Positions 7,792 to 17,615 of a stretch of DNA of 17,615 nt are shown here, piece after piece. The notes under the pieces are model-generated. The model was not told where the DNA came from. It did no database searches and worked only from the letters and a program-made list of their open reading frames with translations. Positions within the stretch are counted from its first letter, which is position 1. Every line of letters starts with the position of its first letter. The stretch is taken from positions 1 through 17,615 of the forward strand of contig JACRDV010000034.1 in NCBI GenBank assembly GCA_024860865.1. Direction: 5' to 3'. The position numbers and the translations under genes are program-made. Source of the stretch: JACRDV01 sp024860865 [NCBI: Methanobacteriota archaeon] (GTDB taxonomy: Archaea; JACRDV01).

Positions 7792-7817
7792 AACTCATCG
7801 AGAGTTCAAAATGAGTT
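7792..7817 (-). terminator. hairpin directly after the MobB stop codon
   Basis: AACTCAT and ATGAGTT form a perfect 7-bp stem with a 12-nt loop starting at the last base of the mobB stop codon. No clear T-run follows on the minus strand, so it may be a 3'-end stabiliser rather than a terminator. Confidence 0.3.
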
Positions 7818-8503
7818 TAAGTTTTCTTCACTACTAATTTGATTTCCTTGGCATTCGAGTCTACGTCTTTTAATGAGGAAAGCATTCCAACTACTGTAGT
7901 TTTAATGAAATCCTGAACAAAAGATTTTAATGGAATTTGTTTTTCATTCACTGTTAGTTTAACAACTTTGGTTGATATTTTTGATAATTTATTTTCAATA
8001 ACATTAACTAATCTGCCTATTTCAGTCTCGTGATCAAGTATCTCAACATTTGTTTTTGACTTTAATTGAAGTTTTTCTTCCTCATTCTTTACAATTGGGC
8101 CAGTTACTGCAATTGAATATCCATCAGATAAAATCTCTTGAACTTCTTTTGCATTTGTTCCAACTATCAGCTTTGGTTGCCCTATACTATGCCAACCCTC
8201 AATTATGATAACATCTATATCTCTGAGAAATTCAATTAATTGCTCAAGCTCAGGTTCGGATTGAGATTTAATGAAAGCTGTTTCACCTTTAGCAACGCTG
8301 GCAACTATAGTTGCTCCTGCTCGAGCATGTCTAAAAGTATCTTTACCAGGAGTATCAATTGTAAAGTCTGCTTTATGAGTATGTTTAATTGTTCCAACTT
8401 TATAGCCGCGAGATACAAACTCTTTAACTAAAGCTTCAACCACATCTGTTTTATTTGCCTCTCTGCCCGGGCCTACTACAGAGAAAATTAACAATTCCAT
8501 CAC
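7817..8503 (-). CDS. mobB: MobB, molybdopterin-guanine dinucleotide biosynthesis protein B (archaeal form)
   Basis: P-loop protein that by family assists MobA in making the guanine dinucleotide form of the molybdenum cofactor. Characteristic stretches are SRGYKVGTIKHTHKADF (31-47), DTPGKDTFRHARAGA (50-64) and VIIIEGWHS (98-106). A C-terminal extension (from about 180, with IPLKSFVQDFIKTTVVGMLSSLK) is shared with archaeal homologues. The Walker A loop is unusual: VVG-PGREA-NKT instead of VVG-xxxx-GKT, one residue longer and Asn for Gly. The start is uncertain: GTG at 8503, ATG at 8500, or TTG at 8494. AGGTGAT overlaps the first two and lies about 4 nt before the TTG, which would begin MLIFSVVG as the family does. 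Last gene of the molybdenum operon, 22 nt after the transporter. Confidence 0.88.
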   Translation of the reverse strand: MMELLIFSVVGPGREANKTDVVEALVKEFVSRGYKVGTIKHTHKADFTIDTPGKDTFRHARAGATIVASVAKGETAFIKSQSEPELEQLIEFLRDIDVIIIEGWHSIGQPKLIVGTNAKEVQEILSDGYSIAVTGPIVKNEEEKLQLKSKTNVEILDHETEIGRLVNVIENKLSKISTKVVKLTVNEKQIPLKSFVQDFIKTTVVGMLSSLKDVDSNAKEIKLVVKKT

Positions 8504-8525
8504 CTATTTTGGATGACAAAATGGT

Positions 8526-9713
8526 TTATTGCATATTCTGTGGTTCGATATATTTTATTATCTTATGTTTAATCGCTAATGCTACAGCGAGCCCTGCAAA
8601 GAATCCAATCGCAATATTTGTTACGATGCTCAGCACAGCTATGAACACTACTACAAACATATTAACGTATTCTCTCATGTCTCGGATGTAAAGACAAAGC
8701 TCTAAACCGGCAAATAGTAGAATTGCTCCAATAATGCTCATCGGCATTGCTCTTATAAATGCTATTATTGAATTGCCAAAGAACAAACCTAAAACCATCA
8801 TTACAACCCCAAGCACAACCATCGACCCACCAGTGCGAGCGCCAAATCGATACTGGCCAGAGATTCCTCCAGCCCCATGGCACATCGGAATCCCCCCAAT
8901 GAATGGAGATAAAATATTTAAAAAACCAACGCTTGTTGCAACTGTACGAGTATTAACCGGTTTTGAAGGAAAAAGATCCCGAGCGATAGCCACAGTAGCG
9001 ATTATTGAATTTCCGATTGTTAATGGAACCTGCGCAATCGCAGCTTTAAAGCCTGCTGTAAAATCATTCACTCCAGGGATGATCGGTGTAGGCATATGGA
9101 AACCTACCGAAAGTTTAGATAGGAGACTTGGAGCTGAAATCATAGCCAATCCAATGCCAAGCCCAAATATAGCAAGTCCTGCTGGAATTTTCCGACTATT
9201 CGCTAGAAAGAAAACCAGTATTATTGCAATAATTCCGACTGCAACGCTATCATATCCAATCCAAGGTGTTCCATTTCCATAGATATATCCTAGACCATTC
9301 ATAGCAAGCGAGATACCAAGACCGAGCTGTACTCCACGAATCACTGGTCTAGGAACATATCTATCAAGAAATTCAATCCCTCCTAATAGCACAATCATTA
9401 GAATTGCCATTCCAGTTACTAGACCAGCAGCCGCAATCTGTTCTGGCGTAAATTTTTCCGCAATTGCTATTGCTCCAATCGCTTTCATTGGCTGCACTGC
9501 CATAGGTATTGCAAACGTTATTCCTGTTATAATATGAAATGCACCAAACATCAACATAATTCCAACTGGGGATACGCCACAAAATACGACTATGCCGATA
9601 AAAAATGGAATGAAAGTCCCCATATCTCCGAGTGATCCGGCAATTTCATGCCTATCATATCGGAAGCCAGAAATCTGTTTTTTAACATCTGCAGCGATGG
9701 ACATAATCCCCAC
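8526..9713 (-). CDS. MOT1-type molybdate transporter (SulP-related)
   Basis: Integral membrane protein of about 395 aa with ten or more hydrophobic segments and the two MOT1 signature regions. These are EIAGSLGDMGTFIPFFIG (23-40) with MAVQPMKAIGA (71-81), and PMCHGAGGISGQYRFGARTGG (276-296). These features define the molybdate/sulfate MOT1 family, known for high-affinity molybdate uptake in algae and plants and also present in prokaryotes. Its place between two moeA genes and mobB argues for molybdate, or tungstate, rather than sulfate. GTG at 9713 overlaps the stop of the preceding MoeA by one base (TAGTG); ATG at 9704 is the alternative. It would replace an ABC ModABC system, none of which is in the window. 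Confidence 0.9.
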   Translation of the reverse strand: MGIMSIAADVKKQISGFRYDRHEIAGSLGDMGTFIPFFIGIVVFCGVSPVGIMLMFGAFHIITGITFAIPMAVQPMKAIGAIAIAEKFTPEQIAAAGLVTGMAILMIVLLGGIEFLDRYVPRPVIRGVQLGLGISLAMNGLGYIYGNGTPWIGYDSVAVGIIAIILVFFLANSRKIPAGLAIFGLGIGLAMISAPSLLSKLSVGFHMPTPIIPGVNDFTAGFKAAIAQVPLTIGNSIIATVAIARDLFPSKPVNTRTVATSVGFLNILSPFIGGIPMCHGAGGISGQYRFGARTGGSMVVLGVVMMVLGLFFGNSIIAFIRAMPMSIIGAILLFAGLELCLYIRDMREYVNMFVVVFIAVLSIVTNIAIGFFAGLAVALAIKHKIIKYIEPQNMQ

Positions 9714-10960
9714 TATTCCACTGGTCTAAATAGTTCAACCTCAACTTCTTCTCCTGTTTCTACCCTATCCTTCCCCTCAGGGATAACTAACAATCCATTG
9801 GCTCTTACCATAGAAGAAAGAACTCCAGAACCTTTTTTTAATGGCTCTACAAAAAGCTGACTTTCTTTCTCAAAAACTCGAACTCGAACAAATTCTCTTA
9901 TTTTAAGCATAGAATTAATGTTCTTTACAGCTCTTGCTTTAACAATGGTTTTAATTTCTTTGCTCACTCCAAGCATTTTTCGAATTACAGGCTTGGCAAG
10001 AGTTTCAAATCCAATCATAGCACCAATTGGATAGCCGGATAAAAATACAATCGGTTTATCGCTAACAATACCTAAGCCCGCAACTTTACCCGGCTTTATT
10101 GCAACACCGTGAATGATTATTGAACCAAATTTTTCAATAGCCTTACATACAAAATCATTAGTTCCAGGCCCTGCTCCACCCATTGTAATGATTATATCTG
10201 TCTTTCCAATTCCTTCTTTTATCTTATTTTCAATTTCATCAAGATTATCTCTAGCGATCCCTAGATTGAGCGGTGTTGCTCCAGCTTCAATAACCATTCC
10301 GCTGATTATTGTTCTATTTGTGCTAGCTACTTTGCAAAGTGGAACTGGTTTGCCCGCCTCAACTAATTCATTCCCAGTAGATATCAATGCCACAAGTGGT
10401 TTTTTTATAACCTTAACAGTTGTTTTTTCAAGAGAAATTACAATGCCAAGATCTGCTGGTTTTAAAACCTCTCCCTTTCTAAGTAAAATCTCTCCTGCTG
10501 TAAAATCTTCTCCCCTCTTGGAAACATCTTTTTCCGATGCAATAGGAAATGTAATTTGGATTTCATCATCAGAAATTTTTTTAGTGTGCTCCACTCTAAT
10601 AACAGCATCAGAACCCTTTGGCATTGCTCCTCCAGTTGGAATATATGCAGCTTGATTTTTTTCAAGCATAAATGCTGGAACTTCTCCAATCTCAACGCTT
10701 CTAATTACTTTAAGGATAGCTGGATTTTCTTGTGAAGCCCCAAAAGTATCGCTTGCTCTAACTGCAAATCCGTCCATTGCTGCTCTATCAAAATTAGGAA
10801 CGTCTCTATCTGCTACAATATCCTCGGCTAAAACTCTTCCAAGAGCATCATGAATCGGAATTTCTTCGGGCTCAAGCTGTTTAATCTCTGTAGTCTCGAA
10901 AAATTTTCTTACAGCATCTTGCACGCTTATTCTTTTTAATGCTGAACTTCCTTTACTCAA
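9713..10960 (-). CDS. moeA: MoeA-family molybdopterin molybdenumtransferase, diverged paralogue
   Basis: MoeA inserts molybdate (or tungstate) into adenylylated molybdopterin. All parts are present in 415 aa: an N-terminal domain with NFDRAAMDGFAVRA (57-69), a YIPTGGAMPKGSDAVIRVE segment (106-124), the MoCF domain with ALISTGNEL (191-199), and a C-terminal beta domain (from about 335). The active loops differ from the usual sequences: GGAGPGTNDF (261-270) in place of GGVSVGxxDF, and FLSGYPIGA (306-314) in place of LPGNP-type. The last Asp and the second Pro are kept. The start appears to be TTG at 10960, with GATGAGG 8-9 nt upstream in the 21-nt gap after the other MoeA. Archaea often have two MoeA proteins, proposed to separate Mo from W. 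Which metal this one handles is not known. Confidence 0.92.
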   Translation of the reverse strand: MSKGSSALKRISVQDAVRKFFETTEIKQLEPEEIPIHDALGRVLAEDIVADRDVPNFDRAAMDGFAVRASDTFGASQENPAILKVIRSVEIGEVPAFMLEKNQAAYIPTGGAMPKGSDAVIRVEHTKKISDDEIQITFPIASEKDVSKRGEDFTAGEILLRKGEVLKPADLGIVISLEKTTVKVIKKPLVALISTGNELVEAGKPVPLCKVASTNRTIISGMVIEAGATPLNLGIARDNLDEIENKIKEGIGKTDIIITMGGAGPGTNDFVCKAIEKFGSIIIHGVAIKPGKVAGLGIVSDKPIVFLSGYPIGAMIGFETLAKPVIRKMLGVSKEIKTIVKARAVKNINSMLKIREFVRVRVFEKESQLFVEPLKKGSGVLSSMVRANGLLVIPEGKDRVETGEEVEVELFRPVE

Positions 10961-10981
10961 TCTGAGTTCCTCATCAGTATA

Positions 10982-12172
10982 TTAGAACAAAATAACTTCT
11001 ACTTCATCCCCCTTGTTTAGGTCTCTATCAGTGAGGAAATACCCATCTGCAAAAACACTTGACCTTAGTGTATGTGCAATAATTGATACTTTGTATGGAG
11101 AACCTGGAGCGAATACTTTCAAGGGGGACTTTTCTGATCCAATGGGAATTGCTTCTCCATCCTTGATTTGAGTGAATACCCCATATACGAACCCTTTTTT
11201 TGGCAGCAAAATATCCTCAGAGGTTCTAAATTTTTTTACAACTTTTGGATGATTGCTATCGAAAAATCGTTTTACAATTAACTCCCATGCAATCAAGGTT
11301 CCATTCGGTTTTCCTGGTAAAGCAAAAACTGGCTTTCCATTTATTACTCCAACCGCTAGTGGTTTTCCTGGCCGAGTTTGTACTTTATGAAAAATTAGTT
11401 CACCTAGATCGGAGATTGCCTTTGGCACAAAATCTCTCTCTCCAACAGAAACGCCACCAATTGTGATTATTGCATCATACTTAGCTCCTTCTAATAGCTT
11501 CTGTTTTATCAGCTCAAGATCATCAGGTACTGATTTTAGATCCGTGGGAGCACAATTTACCTCTTTTAGAAAGGCAATAACCATCGGTGCATTAGTGTTC
11601 GTGGTCAAATTATTGTGAATTTCACTGCCAGTTGAAATTATTGCTACAGTATGTTTTTTAAAAACAAATATTTGAGAGAGCCCAAGTTTATGGAGAATAC
11701 CTATGTCTTGAGCTCTAATCCGATGGCCTGGTTTAAATATGGTTTCTCCTTCTTCAAAATCGGTTCCGGCACGAAGCACATTCTCAAATTGTTTCATCTT
11801 TTTACCGAATAACAAATTACCTTCTATTTGTGCATCCTCAATCTTGAGAACAGCATCTGCGCCTTCAGGCAGCAAAGCACCGGTAGCTACATACATTGTT
11901 TCTCCATTTTGGATCTCTTTACTAGAATCATCGCCAGCGTAAATTTTCCCTATTAAACGCAATGGATATTGATCAGATGATTTGAGAGCATATCCATCGA
12001 ACGTAGATTTATGGCGAGATGGTGATCTGAACTGTGCCGTTATCGGTTCTGCAAGTTCTCTGTCCAGCGCATCATCTATATTAATGCGTTCTGTAGTTCT
12101 TCTTGATTGAAACTTCTCTCTAAGTTGGTCAATTATTGATTTGGCTTGAGCAAGTGGTATCATATTTAACAT
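10982..12172 (-). CDS. moeA: MoeA-family molybdopterin molybdenumtransferase, canonical paralogue
   Basis: Second MoeA of the operon, 396 aa. It has SRHKSTFDGYALK (52-64), YVATGALLPEGADAVLKIED (94-113), the MoCF domain with AIISTGSEI (177-185), the regular loop GGVSVGERDF (239-248) and ALPGKPNGT (284-292), and a C-terminal domain from about 310. The nucleotide/metal loops are closer to the family consensus than in the downstream copy, although STGDE-type Asp is Ser here (TGSE). GGTGATC overlaps the stop of the DUF1786 gene and is 2 nt before ATG 12172 but 9 nt before ATG 12163, so MIPLAQAK at 12163 may be the true N-terminus. Expected to insert Mo or W into molybdopterin in the cytoplasm. Confidence 0.93.
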   Translation of the reverse strand: MLNMIPLAQAKSIIDQLREKFQSRRTTERINIDDALDRELAEPITAQFRSPSRHKSTFDGYALKSSDQYPLRLIGKIYAGDDSSKEIQNGETMYVATGALLPEGADAVLKIEDAQIEGNLLFGKKMKQFENVLRAGTDFEEGETIFKPGHRIRAQDIGILHKLGLSQIFVFKKHTVAIISTGSEIHNNLTTNTNAPMVIAFLKEVNCAPTDLKSVPDDLELIKQKLLEGAKYDAIITIGGVSVGERDFVPKAISDLGELIFHKVQTRPGKPLAVGVINGKPVFALPGKPNGTLIAWELIVKRFFDSNHPKVVKKFRTSEDILLPKKGFVYGVFTQIKDGEAIPIGSEKSPLKVFAPGSPYKVSIIAHTLRSSVFADGYFLTDRDLNKGDEVEVILF

Positions 12173-12176
12173 TAGA

Positions 12177-13343
12177 TCACCATCTGATTTCTAAGCGTCT
12201 ATGCGCAGCTTCTATTAGTCCAACTGTACCAGCCATCATAACATCCCCTCCTGGGCTTGCAAAATGAAATTTTAAATGCGTTTTATTGAAAATTGATCTT
12301 TTTGGACCTGTTACAAGGATGGCTTTGAGACTGCCAAATCCTAATGAGTTCAAAACGTAAACTCCATGCCCGCCATCATCAAGTACCTCTTTGTTTGTGA
12401 GACTTCCATTTGCAAATCTAACCAAAAATCCTTCAAGTTTATTTGGAGATAGCAATCCAGTATGGTGCTCAAAAATCCCATCAATCTTGCCATCTGAGAT
12501 AAGAGCTGCTGTAGTGTGACCATTGCCAACATTGACTGCCATCAAATTTCCAATATAATTAGCTCTTGGATCTTTTAAACATCCTAAAAATGCAGCTGGA
12601 GCGGTATCCATTACTATTACTTTAGCATTAGGCAAGTCTCTTTTTACAGCTTTAACTGCTGACCTCATTCTGACGAAATAGCGGGGTATTTCGTTTTCTT
12701 TAAAAGCAAATGATTCGAGCCTTTGATTTTTCTTTAACAAATCTTTGATTTTCTCGAATCTAAACACTCTATCGCTTATGCCCTTAGGACTAACTCCATG
12801 GTCTTGAACAGCAATGGCCACAACCCTAAGATCACTTAAATCTTCTCCAATTTTTTCAAAAAAGTTTTTCAGCTCTCCGAGATCTATTTCCTTTATAATT
12901 AGTTTAATTCCATCAAAATTCACAGGTTCTTTTCCAACTATTTCTATCCCTAAGTTTCTCACTTGATCTAAGTCATTTCTAACTGTATAAGCAGCGTTCT
13001 CGGTCATTAAAACTTTGTAACCTTTCTCTACATGTTTTTTCAATGCAAATGCAAAAGCTCCTCCCCCTATCACATCGCCATCTATAAAAATGTGTTTTCT
13101 ATTTCGAGTAGCCTTTTGAACCTGTTTGGCAAAAACTATTGAAGGGGAAGGCAGTACCATTTTTGTACAATTTTCAAGGTTTTTTCTTTTATCATAAAGA
13201 AGAATATCTAAAGTTCCAGAGCCAACATCTAAAGCTAATATTTTTTTGGCAGCATTAATATCCAAGTTAAATTTTTCCTTGCAGCGTGGACAAAAATTTT
13301 CTTTTTTGGTTTTTTTTCTAGATTTAGATTGTGGGTGATTCAA
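12177..13343 (-). CDS. DUF1786-family protein, ASKHA-like fold, in a molybdenum operon
   Basis: A 388-aa protein of the archaeal DUF1786 family, often labelled as pyruvate formate-lyase activating related without direct proof. Two sugar-kinase/actin-like phosphate loops are visible: ILALDVGSGTLDILLYD (35-51) and AVNVGNGHTTAALI (269-282), so ATP binding is likely. Other conserved-looking stretches are QDHG (180-183), EHHTG (292-296), DDGGHG (322-327) and SPGGDVMMAGTVGL (363-376). The basic N-terminus carries one CPRC pair (Cys18, Cys21). The start is TTG at 13343, overlapping the tfx stop by 4 nt. If initiation were later, the CPRC part would be lost. Membership of this tight operon suggests a role in cofactor synthesis, metal sensing or enzyme maturation. 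The function is unknown. Confidence 0.82.
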   Translation of the reverse strand: MNHPQSKSRKKTKKENFCPRCKEKFNLDINAAKKILALDVGSGTLDILLYDKRKNLENCTKMVLPSPSIVFAKQVQKATRNRKHIFIDGDVIGGGAFAFALKKHVEKGYKVLMTENAAYTVRNDLDQVRNLGIEIVGKEPVNFDGIKLIIKEIDLGELKNFFEKIGEDLSDLRVVAIAVQDHGVSPKGISDRVFRFEKIKDLLKKNQRLESFAFKENEIPRYFVRMRSAVKAVKRDLPNAKVIVMDTAPAAFLGCLKDPRANYIGNLMAVNVGNGHTTAALISDGKIDGIFEHHTGLLSPNKLEGFLVRFANGSLTNKEVLDDGGHGVYVLNSLGFGSLKAILVTGPKRSIFNKTHLKFHFASPGGDVMMAGTVGLIEAAHRRLEIRW

Positions 13344-13744
13344 CTAATATGCACATCTCCCTTTGAAGTTATTATAATGTCAAATGGTTCGATAACACGA
13401 CGGCCATCAAGTTTTGCAGATTCTTTTGTGCTTATCATTTCAACAATCTTTGTTGCATTTTCACGCACATGAATGCCTTTAGTATTGGCAACATTAAGCA
13501 CTAATCCCGGAACTTCAAAAACATCTGTTCCCGGCTTGACTGTAACATGAACTGGAGATTCAAATTTTTCAATTAATCTAAGCGTTTCGCGAGCGGCTTC
13601 AATTTTTTGGCGTGCTCTTCGCTCCATAATAGTTATGTTAACTCTAGTAGTTTTAAGGCGCTTTGCTATTTCTTCTTGTGTTAGACCTTGAACTCTCAAG
13701 CGAAGGACTTCAAATTGTTTTTTAGTAAGTAGACCACGTTTCAT
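13340..13744 (-). CDS. tfx: Tfx-family transcriptional regulator
   Basis: DNA-binding protein of 134 aa. The N-terminal helix-turn-helix is at about 6-50 (LTKKQFEVLRLRVQGLTQEE then IAKRLKTTRVNITIMERRA), of the sigma-70 region 4 type. The C-terminal Tfx domain is at about 65-134 (VHVTVKPGTDVFEVPG, VNVANTKGIHVRENA). In Methanothermobacter the founding member binds DNA near the promoter of the molybdenum formylmethanofuran dehydrogenase operon, which makes its place at the head of a molybdenum operon telling. ATG at 13744 directly follows a perfect palindrome, and a TATA box is centred about 28 nt upstream, so the transcript is likely leaderless. Self-regulation, and control of the five genes downstream, are inference. 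Signal ligand not known; molybdate or cofactor status is the natural guess. Confidence 0.92.
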   Translation of the reverse strand: MKRGLLTKKQFEVLRLRVQGLTQEEIAKRLKTTRVNITIMERRARQKIEAARETLRLIEKFESPVHVTVKPGTDVFEVPGLVLNVANTKGIHVRENATKIVEMISTKESAKLDGRRVIEPFDIIITSKGDVHIS

Positions 13745-13764
13745 AGTAATCGATTATGATTACT
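13745..13764 (-). promoter_or_regulatory. perfect palindrome abutting the tfx start codon (candidate Tfx operator)
   Basis: AGTAATC and GATTACT arms (7 bp, perfect) are separated by 6 nt and end exactly at the base before the tfx ATG. With the TATA box just upstream this covers the expected transcription start, an ideal place for a repressor. Confidence 0.6.
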
Positions 13765-13766
13765 AA

Positions 13767-13778
13767 TTATATATAAAG
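13767..13778 (-). promoter_or_regulatory. TATA box of the tfx-led molybdenum operon
   Basis: CTTTATATATAA on the minus strand, centred about 28 nt before the tfx ATG, predicts a leaderless transcript. Upstream at 13792-13804 lies TTACC-TTT-GGTAA, a second perfect short inverted repeat, with another GGTAA at about 13822; these may be upstream regulator sites. Confidence 0.6.
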
Positions 13779-13804
13779 TAAACGTTGCCATTTACCTTTG
13801 GTAA

Positions 13805-14133: not shown

Positions 14134-15264
14134 TTAATGAGCCATAAAAGTAGAAAGAGATTCTATTAACTCTTTCTCTTTTTTACAGGAAAGACACAAA
14201 TTTTCTCCTTTTTGGCTAATGTAAGAGTTTCCACATTTTGAGCATTTTGATTTCTCAAGCTGAATCAACACCTTCCTCTTATCATCAAGGAGATCATGTG
14301 GATTAACATACGATGAATGTTTTATTACCCCCTCTGGGCAAACCTCTGAACATAAACCGCATTTAGTGCAATATGCCAACTTGATACAAATGATGGCTTT
14401 GTCTTCATTATCATATCTACTCAATGCGCCTGTTGGACATAAAATTACACACAAATCACAGCCTTTGCAACTCTTATCTATCTCTACTTTAGAGAATGGT
14501 AATTCATCAACATTAATTTTATCTGTAACCGGTTTCCCGAGCTCTTTAAAAAGTTTTAGTAAAAGTGCTCGCTTCTCTGGCAACCTTGGAATAAATCTTT
14601 TCTTAGTAAAATCTTTAATTGGAACTTCAGCAATCAGGGCTTCCGTTACAGTTGTGGTTATATTAGAGGCTACATTGGTCGCTTCCTCTCTGAGATAGGA
14701 GAAAAATTCTCTCCTTGAGTAACCATCCACTAAGTTATTAGCTTCGGAAGATACAAAGATCTTTTTTTCTTTACCAAAGATATCTAGAATTTCATTTGCA
14801 TTTTTAACGCTTTTCAAAGCTACATTTAACCCTAATTTGAATTCACATCCTTTACATTGGCTTGCATTTAACCAAATATTCTCTACACCTGAAAGAGCAG
14901 CTCCTACCAAAACAGTCTCATTTAAAAAGCCAAGACAAGGAACCTCTATATTGCCCCTAGAATTCGGCGATAAAGAACACGCGAATACCGCCATTTTTCT
15001 ATTCCTCATTTTCTGAAGGAGGCGCTCAAAAGATAATTTCCTTAACTCAAATGCTCCGGTAGGGCATAAATTAGTACAAATGCCGCAACCGTTGCATATA
15101 GAATTAACTTTAAGAGGATCGTTTAAAGTAATAGCTTTGAGCGGGCAATTTTCTATGCAGAGTTTGCACTTAGAATTTTTATACCGAAATTTCAAACATA
15201 AGTTTGGCTGGAAATTCACCAGAGGTTGCGATAAAATCTTACCTACTATATCTAGCTCAACCAT
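14134..15264 (-). CDS. multi-cluster ferredoxin-like iron-sulfur protein with C-terminal zinc ribbon
   Basis: A 376-aa soluble electron-transfer protein. Ferredoxin module 1 binds about two [4Fe-4S] clusters through Cys33, 36, 40 (then Pro) and Cys57, 60, 63, 67 (SICNGCGICTNLCPTGA), with Cys23 nearby. A middle part (90-145) has single cysteines at 96 and 110 and a QCKGC pair (137, 140). A YSRREFFSYLREEA stretch follows at 182-195. Module 2 has CKGCDLCVILCP (266-277) and CTKCGLCSEVCP (299-310). The C-terminus is a CSKC...CLSC zinc ribbon (341-360). ATG at 15264 has AGGT 7 nt upstream. It follows the TorD gene by 20 nt, so it probably passes electrons to or from the molybdoenzyme cluster, or helps in its maturation. 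No signal peptide, so cytoplasmic. Confidence 0.85.
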   Translation of the reverse strand: MVELDIVGKILSQPLVNFQPNLCLKFRYKNSKCKLCIENCPLKAITLNDPLKVNSICNGCGICTNLCPTGAFELRKLSFERLLQKMRNRKMAVFACSLSPNSRGNIEVPCLGFLNETVLVGAALSGVENIWLNASQCKGCEFKLGLNVALKSVKNANEILDIFGKEKKIFVSSEANNLVDGYSRREFFSYLREEATNVASNITTTVTEALIAEVPIKDFTKKRFIPRLPEKRALLLKLFKELGKPVTDKINVDELPFSKVEIDKSCKGCDLCVILCPTGALSRYDNEDKAIICIKLAYCTKCGLCSEVCPEGVIKHSSYVNPHDLLDDKRKVLIQLEKSKCSKCGNSYISQKGENLCLSCKKEKELIESLSTFMAH

Positions 15265-15284: not shown

Positions 15285-16040
15285 CTATAGAATTAATTTA
15301 ATTTTAAGAGACTTTTTGGCCTCTTCTATTAATAAATCCATTTCTTTATGCTCTAACTCAATATATTCTTTTGTCAACTTTGCAATTGTTTTATAAAATA
15401 TATGTTTTGAAGATTCTTTAACTTTACTACAAAATTTTGGAGCCCATGTTATCAGATGTTCAGTAAGAAATTCCTTTTGCATCTCTAAGAATTTTATTGC
15501 ACTATCTTTATCCCTAGATTTCCAGGCTTCAAATTCCTTGTTAGTTAAATAATGCATAAACTCTAATTCTAGGCCAATGTGATCTGGCAAATCTTTGCAA
15601 TTTTCTGAAATTTTTACGCCAGCTTTTCTATATTTTTCTTTTACAGCTACTGTAGATTTGCCATAAAGTAAACCTTCAACAACTTCTGTCTTTGGAGATA
15701 ATCCTGCTTCTGGAACGCCAGAATATTCAATAGTCCATTTATCTTTGTATACTGATTCATATGGCGGAACATAATCCAAACCCGGTGCTGTGAACAAACG
15801 AGTATATTCAATTTCAAGCTCATTGAGCAGAGTATTCAGCTCTGAATTTTCAATAAACTTTGAAAGAGAAGCAAATATCGAACCTGAAAAACTTCTAAGT
15901 GCTAATAAAAAATTTTTGTCCTTTATTTTCTCTACAAATTCTTTTGAAGGTTTAAAAGAATAAATTAATGAAAAAAAATTATATATATTGCTTCTAGCTT
16001 CAGCTAATTCTTCAAAGTCTTTAAAATTTTTCTCACTCAT
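15285..16040 (-). CDS. TorD/DmsD-type chaperone for a molybdopterin oxidoreductase
   Basis: All-helical redox-enzyme maturation protein that binds the apo catalytic subunit and its leader until the cofactor is inserted. Family marks in the 251-aa form are EYTRLFTAPGLDYVPPYESVY (78-98 region), LPDHIGLELEFMHYL (151-165) and FLTEHLITWAPKFC (191-204). ATG at 16040 is chosen. The frame stays open for 89 codons further upstream, but that part is hydrophobic, low-complexity, unlike TorD, and would overlap the cytochrome gene. A TATA-like element centred 27 nt before 16040 suggests a leaderless start of its own. It is 20 nt ahead of the iron-sulfur gene and downstream of the cytochrome and reductase genes, the usual company for TorD. 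Confidence 0.9.
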   Translation of the reverse strand: MSEKNFKDFEELAEARSNIYNFFSLIYSFKPSKEFVEKIKDKNFLLALRSFSGSIFASLSKFIENSELNTLLNELEIEYTRLFTAPGLDYVPPYESVYKDKWTIEYSGVPEAGLSPKTEVVEGLLYGKSTVAVKEKYRKAGVKISENCKDLPDHIGLELEFMHYLTNKEFEAWKSRDKDSAIKFLEMQKEFLTEHLITWAPKFCSKVKESSKHIFYKTIAKLTKEYIELEHKEMDLLIEEAKKSLKIKLIL

Positions 16041-16248: not shown

Positions 16249-16677
16249 TCACATATTTTTTCTGTACTTTCTGTATAGACTATATAGCAAAACAGGTAGT
16301 ATAGCAACTACCACTATTGCGGTTGGCCCACATATAGGTTTCTTTTCTTCTTTAGGAGGAGCTGGAGTTGGAGCAACTAAAGAGTGAATATTTATTTTGC
16401 CCAGAAGATTGCCCCTATCAGCATGGCACCCATTGCAGATCTCAGGAGTAGGTCTCGTCATCTTTGTGTGTACAGTACCCATTTGCTCAGTGCCCCTATG
16501 GCATACAAAGCACTCAGTGCCCTCTTTACTATGTTTGCTTGCCTTCCAATCTTCTACAATTTTTGGCGTTGTTCCCGTGTGGCATTTTACGCAATCCTCA
16601 AATTTTTCTTGCGCCGATACAGTTTGGATAAGAAATATAGTTACAAGAACTAATGATATCGCAATTAGTTTTTTCAT
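16249..16677 (-). CDS. triheme cytochrome c with signal peptide and CGP-CTERM-like anchor
   Basis: A 142-aa exported multiheme cytochrome. A signal peptide (MKKLIAISLVLVTIFLIQ then TVSA, cut before Gln) is followed by three CxxCH heme sites: CVKCH, CFVCH and CNGCH. Spare histidines (in SKHSKEG, TVHTK and NIHSL) could be distal ligands. After a Pro/Lys-rich linker comes ICGPTAIVVVAILPVLLYS and a basic tail. This layout resembles the CGP-CTERM sorting signal described from Thermococcales, implying attachment at the outer face of the membrane. Upstream GTG codons at 16689 and 16686 are in frame, but AAGGTGGTGA lies 5 nt before ATG 16677, so that ATG is preferred. It follows the reductase gene closely and would exchange electrons with it or with a quinol oxidase. 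Confidence 0.88.
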   Translation of the reverse strand: MKKLIAISLVLVTIFLIQTVSAQEKFEDCVKCHTGTTPKIVEDWKASKHSKEGTECFVCHRGTEQMGTVHTKMTRPTPEICNGCHADRGNLLGKINIHSLVAPTPAPPKEEKKPICGPTAIVVVAILPVLLYSLYRKYRKNM

Positions 16678-16690
16678 CTCTTTCACCACC

Positions 16691-17615
16691 TTATGCCTTC
16701 ACAAGCTTTACTTTAGTATCATAGAAAACTGCACTTCCGCCAGTTAGATCTGAGAGACACGTGTTTTTAAGATGAGGATCAACTAACATTGCTGCATTAG
16801 CATGAATGCCTCTACCCCTGCGTTCATCTCCTTTGACAACAACTCCATCAACACTTATATCCCGGCTCCCAGTAGCCCAGTTACCAAAGCCAAGTGAAAA
16901 GGCAATTACTCCAGGTGCGATGGCTTGAGAAACTTTAACTTTGCCCACCATTGGTAGTTTTCCTCCTGCTTTAAGGTCCCATGTGCCTTCAGGATTAGAT
17001 GGTGAAACAACCTTTGTTTTATCCCCATCTTTTAATCCTAACCTATCTGCATCCTTTTTATTTATCAAGATGAAATTCTCTGAGAGTACGGCTAAGAGCC
17101 AATAGTCGACACACGTCCTCGATTTTGTCTGGGTTACTTCTCTATGGGTAATCAGCTGAAGATCATACTCTGGATCAAATTTGATCTCATTGCCCAAAGA
17201 ATCTGTTAAAGGCATATATGCTGGCAAACCATAGAAGTACTTTCCAGTTCTGGAATTTTTAGTAGTAGCTGTCTTCTCTTGGTACATGTTGATTAAGTTC
17301 TGACCAGATTTCTTGTAAGTGTGAACAATCCAACCAGGTTGTTTGCCTTTCTTTCCCTCTTCAAAGTCCTCAAAGGCTCCCCCACGATTGAGCGCATACA
17401 CTGTTTTTCTCCAATTATCTCCTGCAATCTTTTTCCATCTTTCAACATCGAAAACTGTCTTTGAAAGGTGTCTTCGTGCTTTTGTAAAAAGTTCTATCTC
17501 TTCATCGCTTGCATCAGGCACTTTAGCATCCACTGCAACATTCGCAGCTTGCCTTACATAATAATCATCTGGCTTTTTAAGATCTACGCCTTTCTCAAAT
17601 CCATCTGGGCCAAAA
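16691..17615 (-). CDS. molybdopterin oxidoreductase catalytic subunit (DMSO-reductase family), 5' end outside window
   Basis: The C-terminal 307 residues of a large molybdopterin enzyme; the frame is open to the window edge, so the start and the cofactor-binding N-terminal domains are missing. The molybdopterin dinucleotide-binding domain is evident: LITHREVTQTKSRTCVDYWL, NFILINKKDADRLGLKDGD, then GVIAFSLGFGNWATGS and GRGIHANAAMLVDPHLKNTC, ending GGSAVFYDTKVKLVKA. This arrangement resembles the tetrathionate/arsenate/polysulfide-type branch of the family, but the substrate cannot be assigned from this part. The gene precedes the cytochrome (13 nt to its ATG), then TorD and the iron-sulfur protein. 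Whether a Tat leader is present needs the missing 5' part. Confidence 0.9.
   Translation of the reverse strand, partial: FGPDGFEKGVDLKKPDDYYVRQAANVAVDAKVPDASDEEIELFTKARRHLSKTVFDVERWKKIAGDNWRKTVYALNRGGAFEDFEEGKKGKQPGWIVHTYKKSGQNLINMYQEKTATTKNSRTGKYFYGLPAYMPLTDSLGNEIKFDPEYDLQLITHREVTQTKSRTCVDYWLLAVLSENFILINKKDADRLGLKDGDKTKVVSPSNPEGTWDLKAGGKLPMVGKVKVSQAIAPGVIAFSLGFGNWATGSRDISVDGVVVKGDERRGRGIHANAAMLVDPHLKNTCLSDLTGGSAVFYDTKVKLVKA

What the first reader, a model, noticed from the sequence alone, without database searches (positions are those of the whole stretch)
7817..13764. A complete Tfx-led molybdenum operon
Six genes run on one strand with gaps of at most 22 nt: tfx, DUF1786, two moeA, a MOT1 transporter and mobB. 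Tfx is known from one methanogen as a DNA-binding protein at a molybdenum formylmethanofuran dehydrogenase operon. Finding it at the head of uptake and cofactor genes suggests Tfx is a general molybdenum or cofactor regulator in archaea rather than a methanogenesis factor. No ModE is seen.
Basis: partly seen in the sequence, partly recalled or inferred. Interest (0 to 1): 0.75.

Follow-up and report, generated by a model that had tools for sequence, protein, structure and literature searches.

The report
Archaeal Tfx switch on molybdenum genes
In an uncultured archaeon a small DNA-binding protein called Tfx heads a row of genes for taking up and loading molybdenum, and a short paired DNA signal found in front of this and several related tfx genes suggests that Tfx controls molybdenum and tungsten genes in many archaea, though not in all.

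Summary
Six genes (tfx, DUF1786, moeA, moeA, MOT1, mobB) run on one strand at 7817-13744; their junctions range from a 4-nt overlap to a 22-nt gap. "Complete" overstates it: no moa gene, mobA or ABC transporter lies in the cluster. No ModE match was found in the draft genome.

Of 125 distinct Tfx sites, 43 have a gene of the classes named beforehand (MoeA, MobB, MOT1, molybdate/tungstate binding protein) within five genes; such genes fill 52 of 719 near positions against 13 of 828 distant ones. Whole clades lack the link, including Thermococcales EnfR.

New here: an 18-bp dyad, GTAAAY-N6-RTTTAC. In 2.07 Mb of tfx-centred sequence, 7 of 8 strict copies lie within 250 bp upstream of a tfx start; the window's copy (13778-13795) abuts the TATA-like box. 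Genome-wide the dyad is not in excess. The genome's second Tfx, 55% identical, is divergent from a tungstate-type ABC transporter.

Likely: Tfx is a self-regulating switch for Mo/W genes in this and several other lineages. Binding, direction of control and signal are untested.

The parts
13340..13744 (-). tfx: 134-aa Tfx-family DNA-binding protein (sigma-70 region-4-like HTH plus TFX_C domain)
   Evidence: EnfR DNA-contact residues R35/R43/R44 align with R34/R42/R43 here; predicted fold best matches EnfR 8hno, E 2.3e-11 but TM 0.60
12177..13343 (-). DUF1786 protein, predicted actin-like (ASKHA) ATPase fold with a low-confidence N-terminal extension of about 26 aa; overlaps tfx by 4 nt
   Evidence: model pLDDT 89.5; low-TM but consistent PDB matches FtsA, glucokinase, MreB, PPX
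10982..12172 (-). moeA paralogue 1 (molybdopterin molybdotransferase-like, no MoeA_C match)
9713..10960 (-). moeA paralogue 2 (MoeA_N, MoCF_biosynth and MoeA_C)
8526..9713 (-). MOT1-type molybdate transporter
7817..8503 (-). mobB (molybdopterin-guanine dinucleotide adaptor), last gene of the cluster
13778..13795 (-). strict operator-like dyad GTAAATGGCAACGTTTAC, centre 42 bp before the tfx start, immediately upstream of the TATA-like box
   Evidence: enrichment at tfx starts
13765..13777 (-). TATA-like box TTTATATATAATT of the tfx promoter
   Evidence: sequence; assignment inferred
13744..13765 (.). second dyad, perfect inverted repeat TAGTAATC-N6-GATTACTA (core GTAATC-N6-GATTAC, the same 6-6-6 layout), over the inferred transcription start
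   Evidence: (I4)
14134..15264 (-). neighbouring 4Fe-4S polyferredoxin, end of the upstream molybdoenzyme group
15285..16037 (-). TorD/DmsD/type II DMSO reductase chaperone-like protein (the ORF as listed runs to 16307)
16249..16689 (-). cytochrome c (Cytochrome_C7/DmsE-like)
16691..17533 (-). C-terminal part of a TtrA-like molybdopterin oxidoreductase near the contig end; probable molybdoenzyme client

Best explanation
The cluster is a Tfx-headed molybdenum supply operon. The Tfx dimer most likely binds the dyad GTAAAY-N6-RTTTAC beside the TATA box of its own promoter, and probably the second dyad over the start site, and so sets transcription of tfx together with the downstream genes for molybdate uptake (MOT1), metal insertion (two MoeA) and MGD finishing (MobB), which serve molybdoenzymes such as the one encoded just upstream. 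Repression with release when metal or cofactor is short is the most likely sign, because at 6 of the 7 distinct strict sites the dyad centre lies 21-45 bp before the tfx start, where it overlaps or abuts the basal promoter; activation from the BRE side is possible in this promoter. A paralogous Tfx in the same genome sits divergently beside a tungstate-type ABC operon whose shared promoter region carries one-mismatch and 17-bp variants of the dyad. Shown: gene content and order, neighbour enrichment, dyad enrichment at tfx starts, the paralogue. Inferred: co-transcription, dyad binding, direction of control, metal response.
For: Gene content and spacing. Neighbour enrichment for the classes named beforehand, odds ratio 4.9, thinned 4.65; against genome-wide positions, MOT1 lies within 5 kb of Tfx at 6 of 108 sites (0.21 expected) and FmdE at 15 of 108 (0.74 expected). 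The 29 nearby binding proteins hit only TupA/WtpA/ModA models. Strict dyad: 7 of 8 copies in 2,069,811 bp of tfx loci lie in the 30,832 bp just upstream of tfx starts (binomial 1.3e-12), in 6 family codes; 6 of 62 non-redundant tfx upstreams against 0 of 1327 control upstreams. Left-out-family scoring keeps the sites of f57, f119, f109, f77 and f2 (L093) above all 1327 controls. Copies away from tfx lie 13 bp before a tupA-like ORF (G341, L250) and 27 bp before a WtpC-like permease/ATPase pair (G217, L242). In f6 (Thermococcales-type), 17 of 20 tfx starts carry the same 6-6-6 layout, 12 of them with perfectly matched arms in three versions. Literature: Methanothermobacter tfx precedes fmdECB, binds downstream of its promoter, and tfx transcription is repressed by tungstate (PMC3087415, passages).
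Against: No binding or expression data for this organism. Genome-wide the dyad is not in excess: 36 strict sites against 31 for the reversed control in 42 genomes (23 against 7 in the first 32 handles, 13 against 24 in the 10 methanogen/Thermococcales-type and other comparison genomes), and in this genome GTAAA-N7/8-TTTAC occurs 11 times against 10. Leaving family f1 out, the window's strict dyad is not the top 18-mer of its own upstream; the second dyad is, and 8 of 1327 controls score as high. Only 7 of 123 distinct tfx upstreams carry the strict dyad and 27 of 123 the relaxed one, 18 of these Thermococcales-type. The clade nearest the studied methanogen protein shows no strict dyad, and in the tfx-fmdE gap of two f34 loci I saw none. 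Of 29 strict sites away from tfx starts I looked at 14; 12 are not in front of a Mo/W gene, among them the other strict copy in this genome, between two convergent gene ends. The EnfR footprint holds one perfect half-site and a poor partner, no better than 35 of 1327 controls. The binding-protein matches checked singly are below NCBIfam's equivalog cut-offs, so Mo against W cannot be assigned. The genome-wide MoeA test showed no excess (1 of 108 within 5 kb, 1.30 expected) but used a listing cut at 150 matches. The EnfR authors find no effector pocket, so direct metal sensing is doubtful.
Confidence: 0.64

Rival explanations
1. Tfx is a general energy-metabolism regulator whose neighbours vary by clade; here it happens to sit by Moco genes because molybdoenzymes are part of respiration, and it does not answer to molybdenum itself but to redox state or substrate.
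For: EnfR represses a CO dehydrogenase cluster and binds antiporter, sulfhydrogenase and formate dehydrogenase promoters (PMC10570040, abstract and passages); several Tfx clades have no Mo/W neighbours; the window operon lies next to a respiratory molybdoenzyme group.
Against: The enriched neighbours include uptake genes (TupA-, WtpA- and ModA-like, MOT1), which concern the metal rather than one respiration; methanogen tfx transcription answers to tungstate.
Confidence: 0.23
2. The dyad is the site of another regulator, or part of basal promoters, and Tfx is only a bystander gene in Mo/W loci.
For: Only a minority of tfx promoters carry it; it is not in excess genome-wide; no binding shown; the arms are AT-rich and overlap TATA-like sequence in several loci.
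Against: 7 of 8 strict copies in the tfx loci are at tfx starts; the same layout recurs at the Thermococcales-type tfx start, where the neighbours are not Mo genes; the EnfR footprint contains a GTTTAC half-site.
Confidence: 0.13

Closest known systems
Tfx of Methanothermobacter (MTH916) at the fmdECB molybdenum formylmethanofuran dehydrogenase operon
   Same: Tfx family, directly in front of molybdenum genes, metal-linked (PMC3087415 passages); in the four f34 genomes of this survey tfx-FmdE-MopB with an ABC operon beside it repeats that order.
   Different: Here the downstream genes are uptake and cofactor genes (MOT1, moeA, mobB) rather than the enzyme; no FmdE match in the whole draft genome; the protein falls outside the 14-row clade (SH-aLRT 90) that holds the f34 row.
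EnfR (TON_1525) of Thermococcus onnurineus, a Tfx-family repressor of the CODH cluster
   Same: Closest solved structure (8hno), conserved DNA-contact residues and T55 equivalent, pseudo-palindromic target.
   Different: EnfR's clade has no Mo/W neighbours (0 of 20 f6 sites); its published 36-bp site is only a partial match to the dyad.
ModE, the molybdate-responsive regulator of mod genes
   Same: Same proposed role: one regulator for molybdate uptake and Moco genes (ModE's role is recalled).
   Different: Different family; none in this genome. Tfx-bearing genomes have a good ModE match (E <= 1e-10) less often, 10 of 86 against 88 of 308, but there is no difference at E <= 1e-3 (24 of 86 against 99 of 308), and kinship is not corrected for.

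Membership tests
Tfx family of DNA-binding proteins | TFX_C domain and full-length Tfx model above curated cut-offs | tested here: met
   PF14601 80.9 bits (cut-off 27); TIGR00721 127 bits (cut-off 60.25)
Tfx family of DNA-binding proteins | Sigma-70 region-4-like HTH with the EnfR DNA-contact arginines | tested here: met
   R34/R42/R43 present (R35/R43/R44 of EnfR); across 127 rows residue 34 is R in 111, residue 42 R in 46 and K in 71, residue 43 R in 93, T54 in 127
Tfx family of DNA-binding proteins | 'Eighth note' dimer fold | tested here: inconclusive
   Monomer model best matches 8hno/8hnp with E 2.3e-11 but TM 0.6 and rmsd about 6 A; the dimer was not modelled
Mo/W-responsive regulator (ModE-like role, not ModE family) | Genomic linkage to Mo/W uptake and cofactor genes beyond chance | tested here: met
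Mo/W-responsive regulator (ModE-like role, not ModE family) | Conserved operator in the regulated promoters | tested here: inconclusive
   Dyad present in this promoter and in other Mo/W-linked tfx/tup promoters, but not in excess genome-wide and binding untested
Mo/W-responsive regulator (ModE-like role, not ModE family) | Expression or DNA binding changes with molybdate or tungstate | not testable with these tools
   needs growth or binding assays
ModE family | ModE HTH model match | tested here: not met
   No TIGR00637 match in G000, 0 candidates; the HTH here matches sigma-r4/GerE models

The most novel reading that the evidence does not exclude
Archaea without ModE run molybdenum and tungsten homeostasis with Tfx. 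In this lineage tfx was duplicated and split: one copy controls molybdate uptake and Moco loading (MOT1, MoeA, MobB), the other tungstate uptake (Tup-type ABC), each reading diverged versions of one 18-bp dyad, so that the cell can tell the two metals apart with a regulator fold that has no known metal pocket. The co-transcribed actin-like DUF1786 ATPase could be the missing sensor or anti-repressor.
Probability: 0.25. Interest if true: 0.78.

Novelty: new variant of a known kind. Interest (0 to 1): 0.57.

Why it matters
How archaea without ModE sense molybdate and tungstate is, to my knowledge, open. A candidate regulator with an 18-bp operator candidate, two copies in one genome beside Mo and W uptake genes, and relatives in cultured archaea makes the question testable. 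The dyad also predicts autoregulation of EnfR in Thermococcus.

Tried and rejected
Rejected: that Tfx is linked to Mo genes throughout archaea. Rejected: DUF1786 as part of a conserved Tfx signature (1 of 127 sites; at the other 26 DUF1786 loci, held with 1.5 kb flanks, there was no profile hit for MobB, MOT1, FmdE, MopB or a Mo/W binding protein, and a MoeA-profile hit at two, of which the one scanned is a small MoCF-domain protein). Uninformative: the genome-wide MoeA distance test (listing cut at 150 matches). Weak: Tfx against ModE exclusion (depends on threshold). Against a wide regulon: no genome-wide excess of the dyad. Led nowhere: class and phylum searches returned only the window's own genome; tRNA and Rfam scans were empty; a geometry-only test for any 5-mer or 6-mer arms showed no enrichment once GTAAA was left out (12 of 62 against 251 of 1327; 5 of 62 against 91 of 1327).

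Rows dropped: 3 of 13 named loci (L113-L115, partial matches) were left out throughout. The other ten named loci included two that repeat surveyed genomes (L106 = L160, L109 = L199); still hold them, one search does not. A few fetched stretches of one contig overlap, so some bases are counted twice. 2 of 127 tfx upstreams were too short. 80 of 127 proteins went into the tree after thinning.
Full report
Observation. The window's own genome is a draft of 1.54 Mb in 160 contigs, 92.45% complete, and the only member of its phylum that the tool searched. On the minus strand six ORFs lie head to tail: tfx 13340-13744, DUF1786 12177-13343, moeA 10982-12172, moeA 9713-10960, MOT1 8526-9713, mobB 7817-8503, with junctions -4, +4, +21, -1 and +22 nt (families). 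This confirms the finding. The cluster is not a complete Moco pathway: it has uptake, metal insertion and the MobB adaptor. The first MoeA has no MoeA_C match. No ModE was found in the assembly. Above the cluster, after 389 nt, a group with a truncated TtrA-like molybdopterin oxidoreductase, a cytochrome c, a TorD-type chaperone and a polyferredoxin runs in the same direction; it is a likely client of the cofactor.

Neighbour survey. PF14601 matches 117 places in 86 of 394 archaeal genomes (count). I fetched up to 10 kb on each side where contigs allowed, added 10 named loci, and called ORFs mechanically. Two named loci repeat surveyed genomes, which leaves 125 distinct sites; earlier calls hold all 127. 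Profiles grown from seeds in these loci were used at E <= 1e-5. The density is 52 of 719 at positions 1-3 and 13 of 828 at positions 7-12, odds ratio 4.89, p 3e-8; thinned 28 of 360 against 7 of 393, odds ratio 4.65, p 9e-5. With FmdE and MopB added after inspection it is 48 of 125 sites, in 15 of 21 anonymous family codes and 3 of 8 distinct named loci. The 29 binding proteins within five genes (28 distinct) hit only TupA (15 members), WtpA and ModA models in NCBIfam at E <= 1e-10, so phosphate-type proteins do not seem to inflate the count; the ones scored singly fall below the equivalog cut-offs, so tungstate against molybdate is not settled. Against genome-wide positions in 80 genomes, MOT1 is within 5 kb of Tfx at 6 of 108 sites (0.21 expected) and FmdE at 15 of 108 (0.74 expected). 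The same test for MoeA gave 1 of 108 (1.30 expected), but its listing was cut at 150 matches, so the weaker MoeA copies beside tfx were not in it.

The link is not universal. The tree has one clade of 14 rows, all with Mo/W neighbours, that contains the f34 row with the tfx-FmdE-MopB order known from Methanothermobacter. Thermococcales-type f6 (0 of 20), f42 (0 of 8) and f23 (1 of 12) are almost free of Mo/W neighbours, and f30 has 4 of 23. With 138 columns many forks are open. That f6 is Thermococcales-type rests on the EnfR likeness and on named locus L110, a Thermococcus, that groups with it. The window Tfx groups with the second Tfx of its own genome (55% identity, SH-aLRT 94). That second copy, on contig 116, is divergent from a TupA-like binding protein, a permease and a WtpC-like ATPase with a TOBE domain.

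The dyad. Searching 200 bp upstream of non-redundant Mo/W-linked tfx genes for inverted repeats gave GTAAA-N7/8-TTTAC in 7 of 27 against 1 of 1327 control upstreams from the same loci. The strict form GTAAAY-N6-RTTTAC occurs 8 times in the 2,069,811 bp of the distinct loci; seven of these are in the 30,832 bp just upstream of tfx starts (binomial 1.3e-12; with the repeated locus 8 of 9), in f1, f57, f119, f2, f109 and f77. In divergent loci the same site also precedes the tungstate or molybdate binding-protein gene. The window copy is at 13778-13795, directly before a TATA-like box at 13765-13777; a second perfect repeat of the same 6-6-6 layout, GTAATC-N6-GATTAC, spans the inferred start. The second tfx of the genome has a one-mismatch copy at -26 and a 17-bp variant.

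Limits of the dyad. Genome-wide it is not in excess: 36 strict sites against 31 for the reversed pattern in 42 genomes, 23 against 7 in the first 32 handles given and 13 against 24 in the last 10. Of 29 sites not at a tfx start I looked at 14: one is 13 bp before a tupA-like ORF, one 27 bp before a WtpC-like permease/ATPase pair, and 12 are not in front of Mo/W genes. So the signal is its concentration at tfx, and any regulon beyond the neighbours is small or uses weaker sites. A relaxed form, KTAARY-N6-RYTTAM, is in 12 of 62 non-redundant tfx upstreams and 5 of 1327 controls; it was widened after seeing f6, so that is not an independent test. In 17 of 20 f6 loci it lies 10-24 bp before the start; 12 have perfectly matched arms (10 TTAAAC/GTTTAA, 1 TTAAGC/GCTTAA, 1 GTAAGC/GCTTAC) and 5 have a mismatch. 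It overlaps the likely ribosome site there, so an RNA role is possible. The published EnfR footprint contains GTTTAC with an imperfect partner.

Proteins. The window Tfx keeps the EnfR contact arginines and the T55 equivalent; its model matches EnfR best. The EnfR authors argue that the C-terminal domain is probably not an effector-binding domain and suggest an unknown antirepressor (section 19, read; of section 20 I read part 1 of 2). DUF1786 models as an actin-like ATPase fold, with low TM-scores but many E < 1e-3 matches of that class; Pfam's description, a putative activating enzyme, finds no support in the fold. No paper holding the word DUF1786 is in the library.

Mechanism. The most economical reading is autoregulation plus control of Mo/W genes through the dyad, probably as a repressor, since the site overlaps or abuts basal promoter elements. 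What is sensed is unknown: metal, a cofactor intermediate, or a partner protein. Methanothermobacter tfx transcription is repressed by tungstate (PMC3087415, passages read; the primary paper by Hochheimer and colleagues was not read).

Prior art. Among the rows listed by the searches, only PMC3087415 and PMC10570040 treat this protein; one search was too broad to be useful. Neither, in the parts I read, reports this neighbour pattern or the dyad. The library lacks most subscription journals, so this is not proof of absence.

Removing the two repeated loci lowered the counts slightly, and the lack of a genome-wide excess is now stated; confidence went from 0.66 to 0.64 and interest from 0.58 to 0.57.

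Noticed in passing
G000:C116 (L086:2917-6261): Second tfx of the same genome, 55% identical, divergent from a tungstate-type ABC operon; its promoter holds several GTAAA/TTTAC half-sites.
   Followed up: yes
upstream of tfx/EnfR in f6 loci, e.g. L192, L195, L075: Inverted repeat of the same layout centred 10-11 bp before the start codon in 16 of 20 loci (one more at 24 bp), 12 of the 17 with matched arms in three versions; predicts autoregulation of EnfR, or an RNA hairpin at the ribosome site.
   Followed up: partly
window:12177-13343: DUF1786 models as an actin-like (ASKHA) ATPase, not an activating enzyme as Pfam describes it; the window copy has an extra low-confidence N-terminus with a CPRC motif.
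   Followed up: partly
G146, G002, G024 and other f34/f3 genomes (L254, L255, L257): DUF1786 lies about 6 kb from the ModE-matching gene in eight of these genomes (positions), a possible second link of DUF1786 to molybdenum control; stretches fetched but not analysed.
   Followed up: no
L074, L084, L085, L091, L154, L156, L162-L164: A recurring group of tfx, FmdE and MoeA, often with MobB, outside the f34 methanogen-type order; suggests that FmdE is a Moco-related protein rather than a methanogenesis subunit.
   Followed up: partly
L241:803-3938: A strict dyad in G217 lies 65 bp before a Peripla_BP_2/CWB2 protein and a FecCD-type permease; substrate unknown.
   Followed up: partly
window:16691-17533: TtrA-like molybdopterin oxidoreductase cut off near the contig end, so its promoter could not be checked for the dyad.
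   Followed up: no
window:10982-12172 and 9713-10960: Two tandem moeA genes, one without the C-terminal domain; could be Mo- and W-specific versions (recalled idea, not tested).
   Followed up: no
window:49-6162: Cell-surface or sugar genes by sequence look (DegT-like aminotransferase, polysaccharide deacetylase-like, glycosyltransferase, membrane protein), seemingly unrelated to the operon; recognised by eye only.
   Followed up: no
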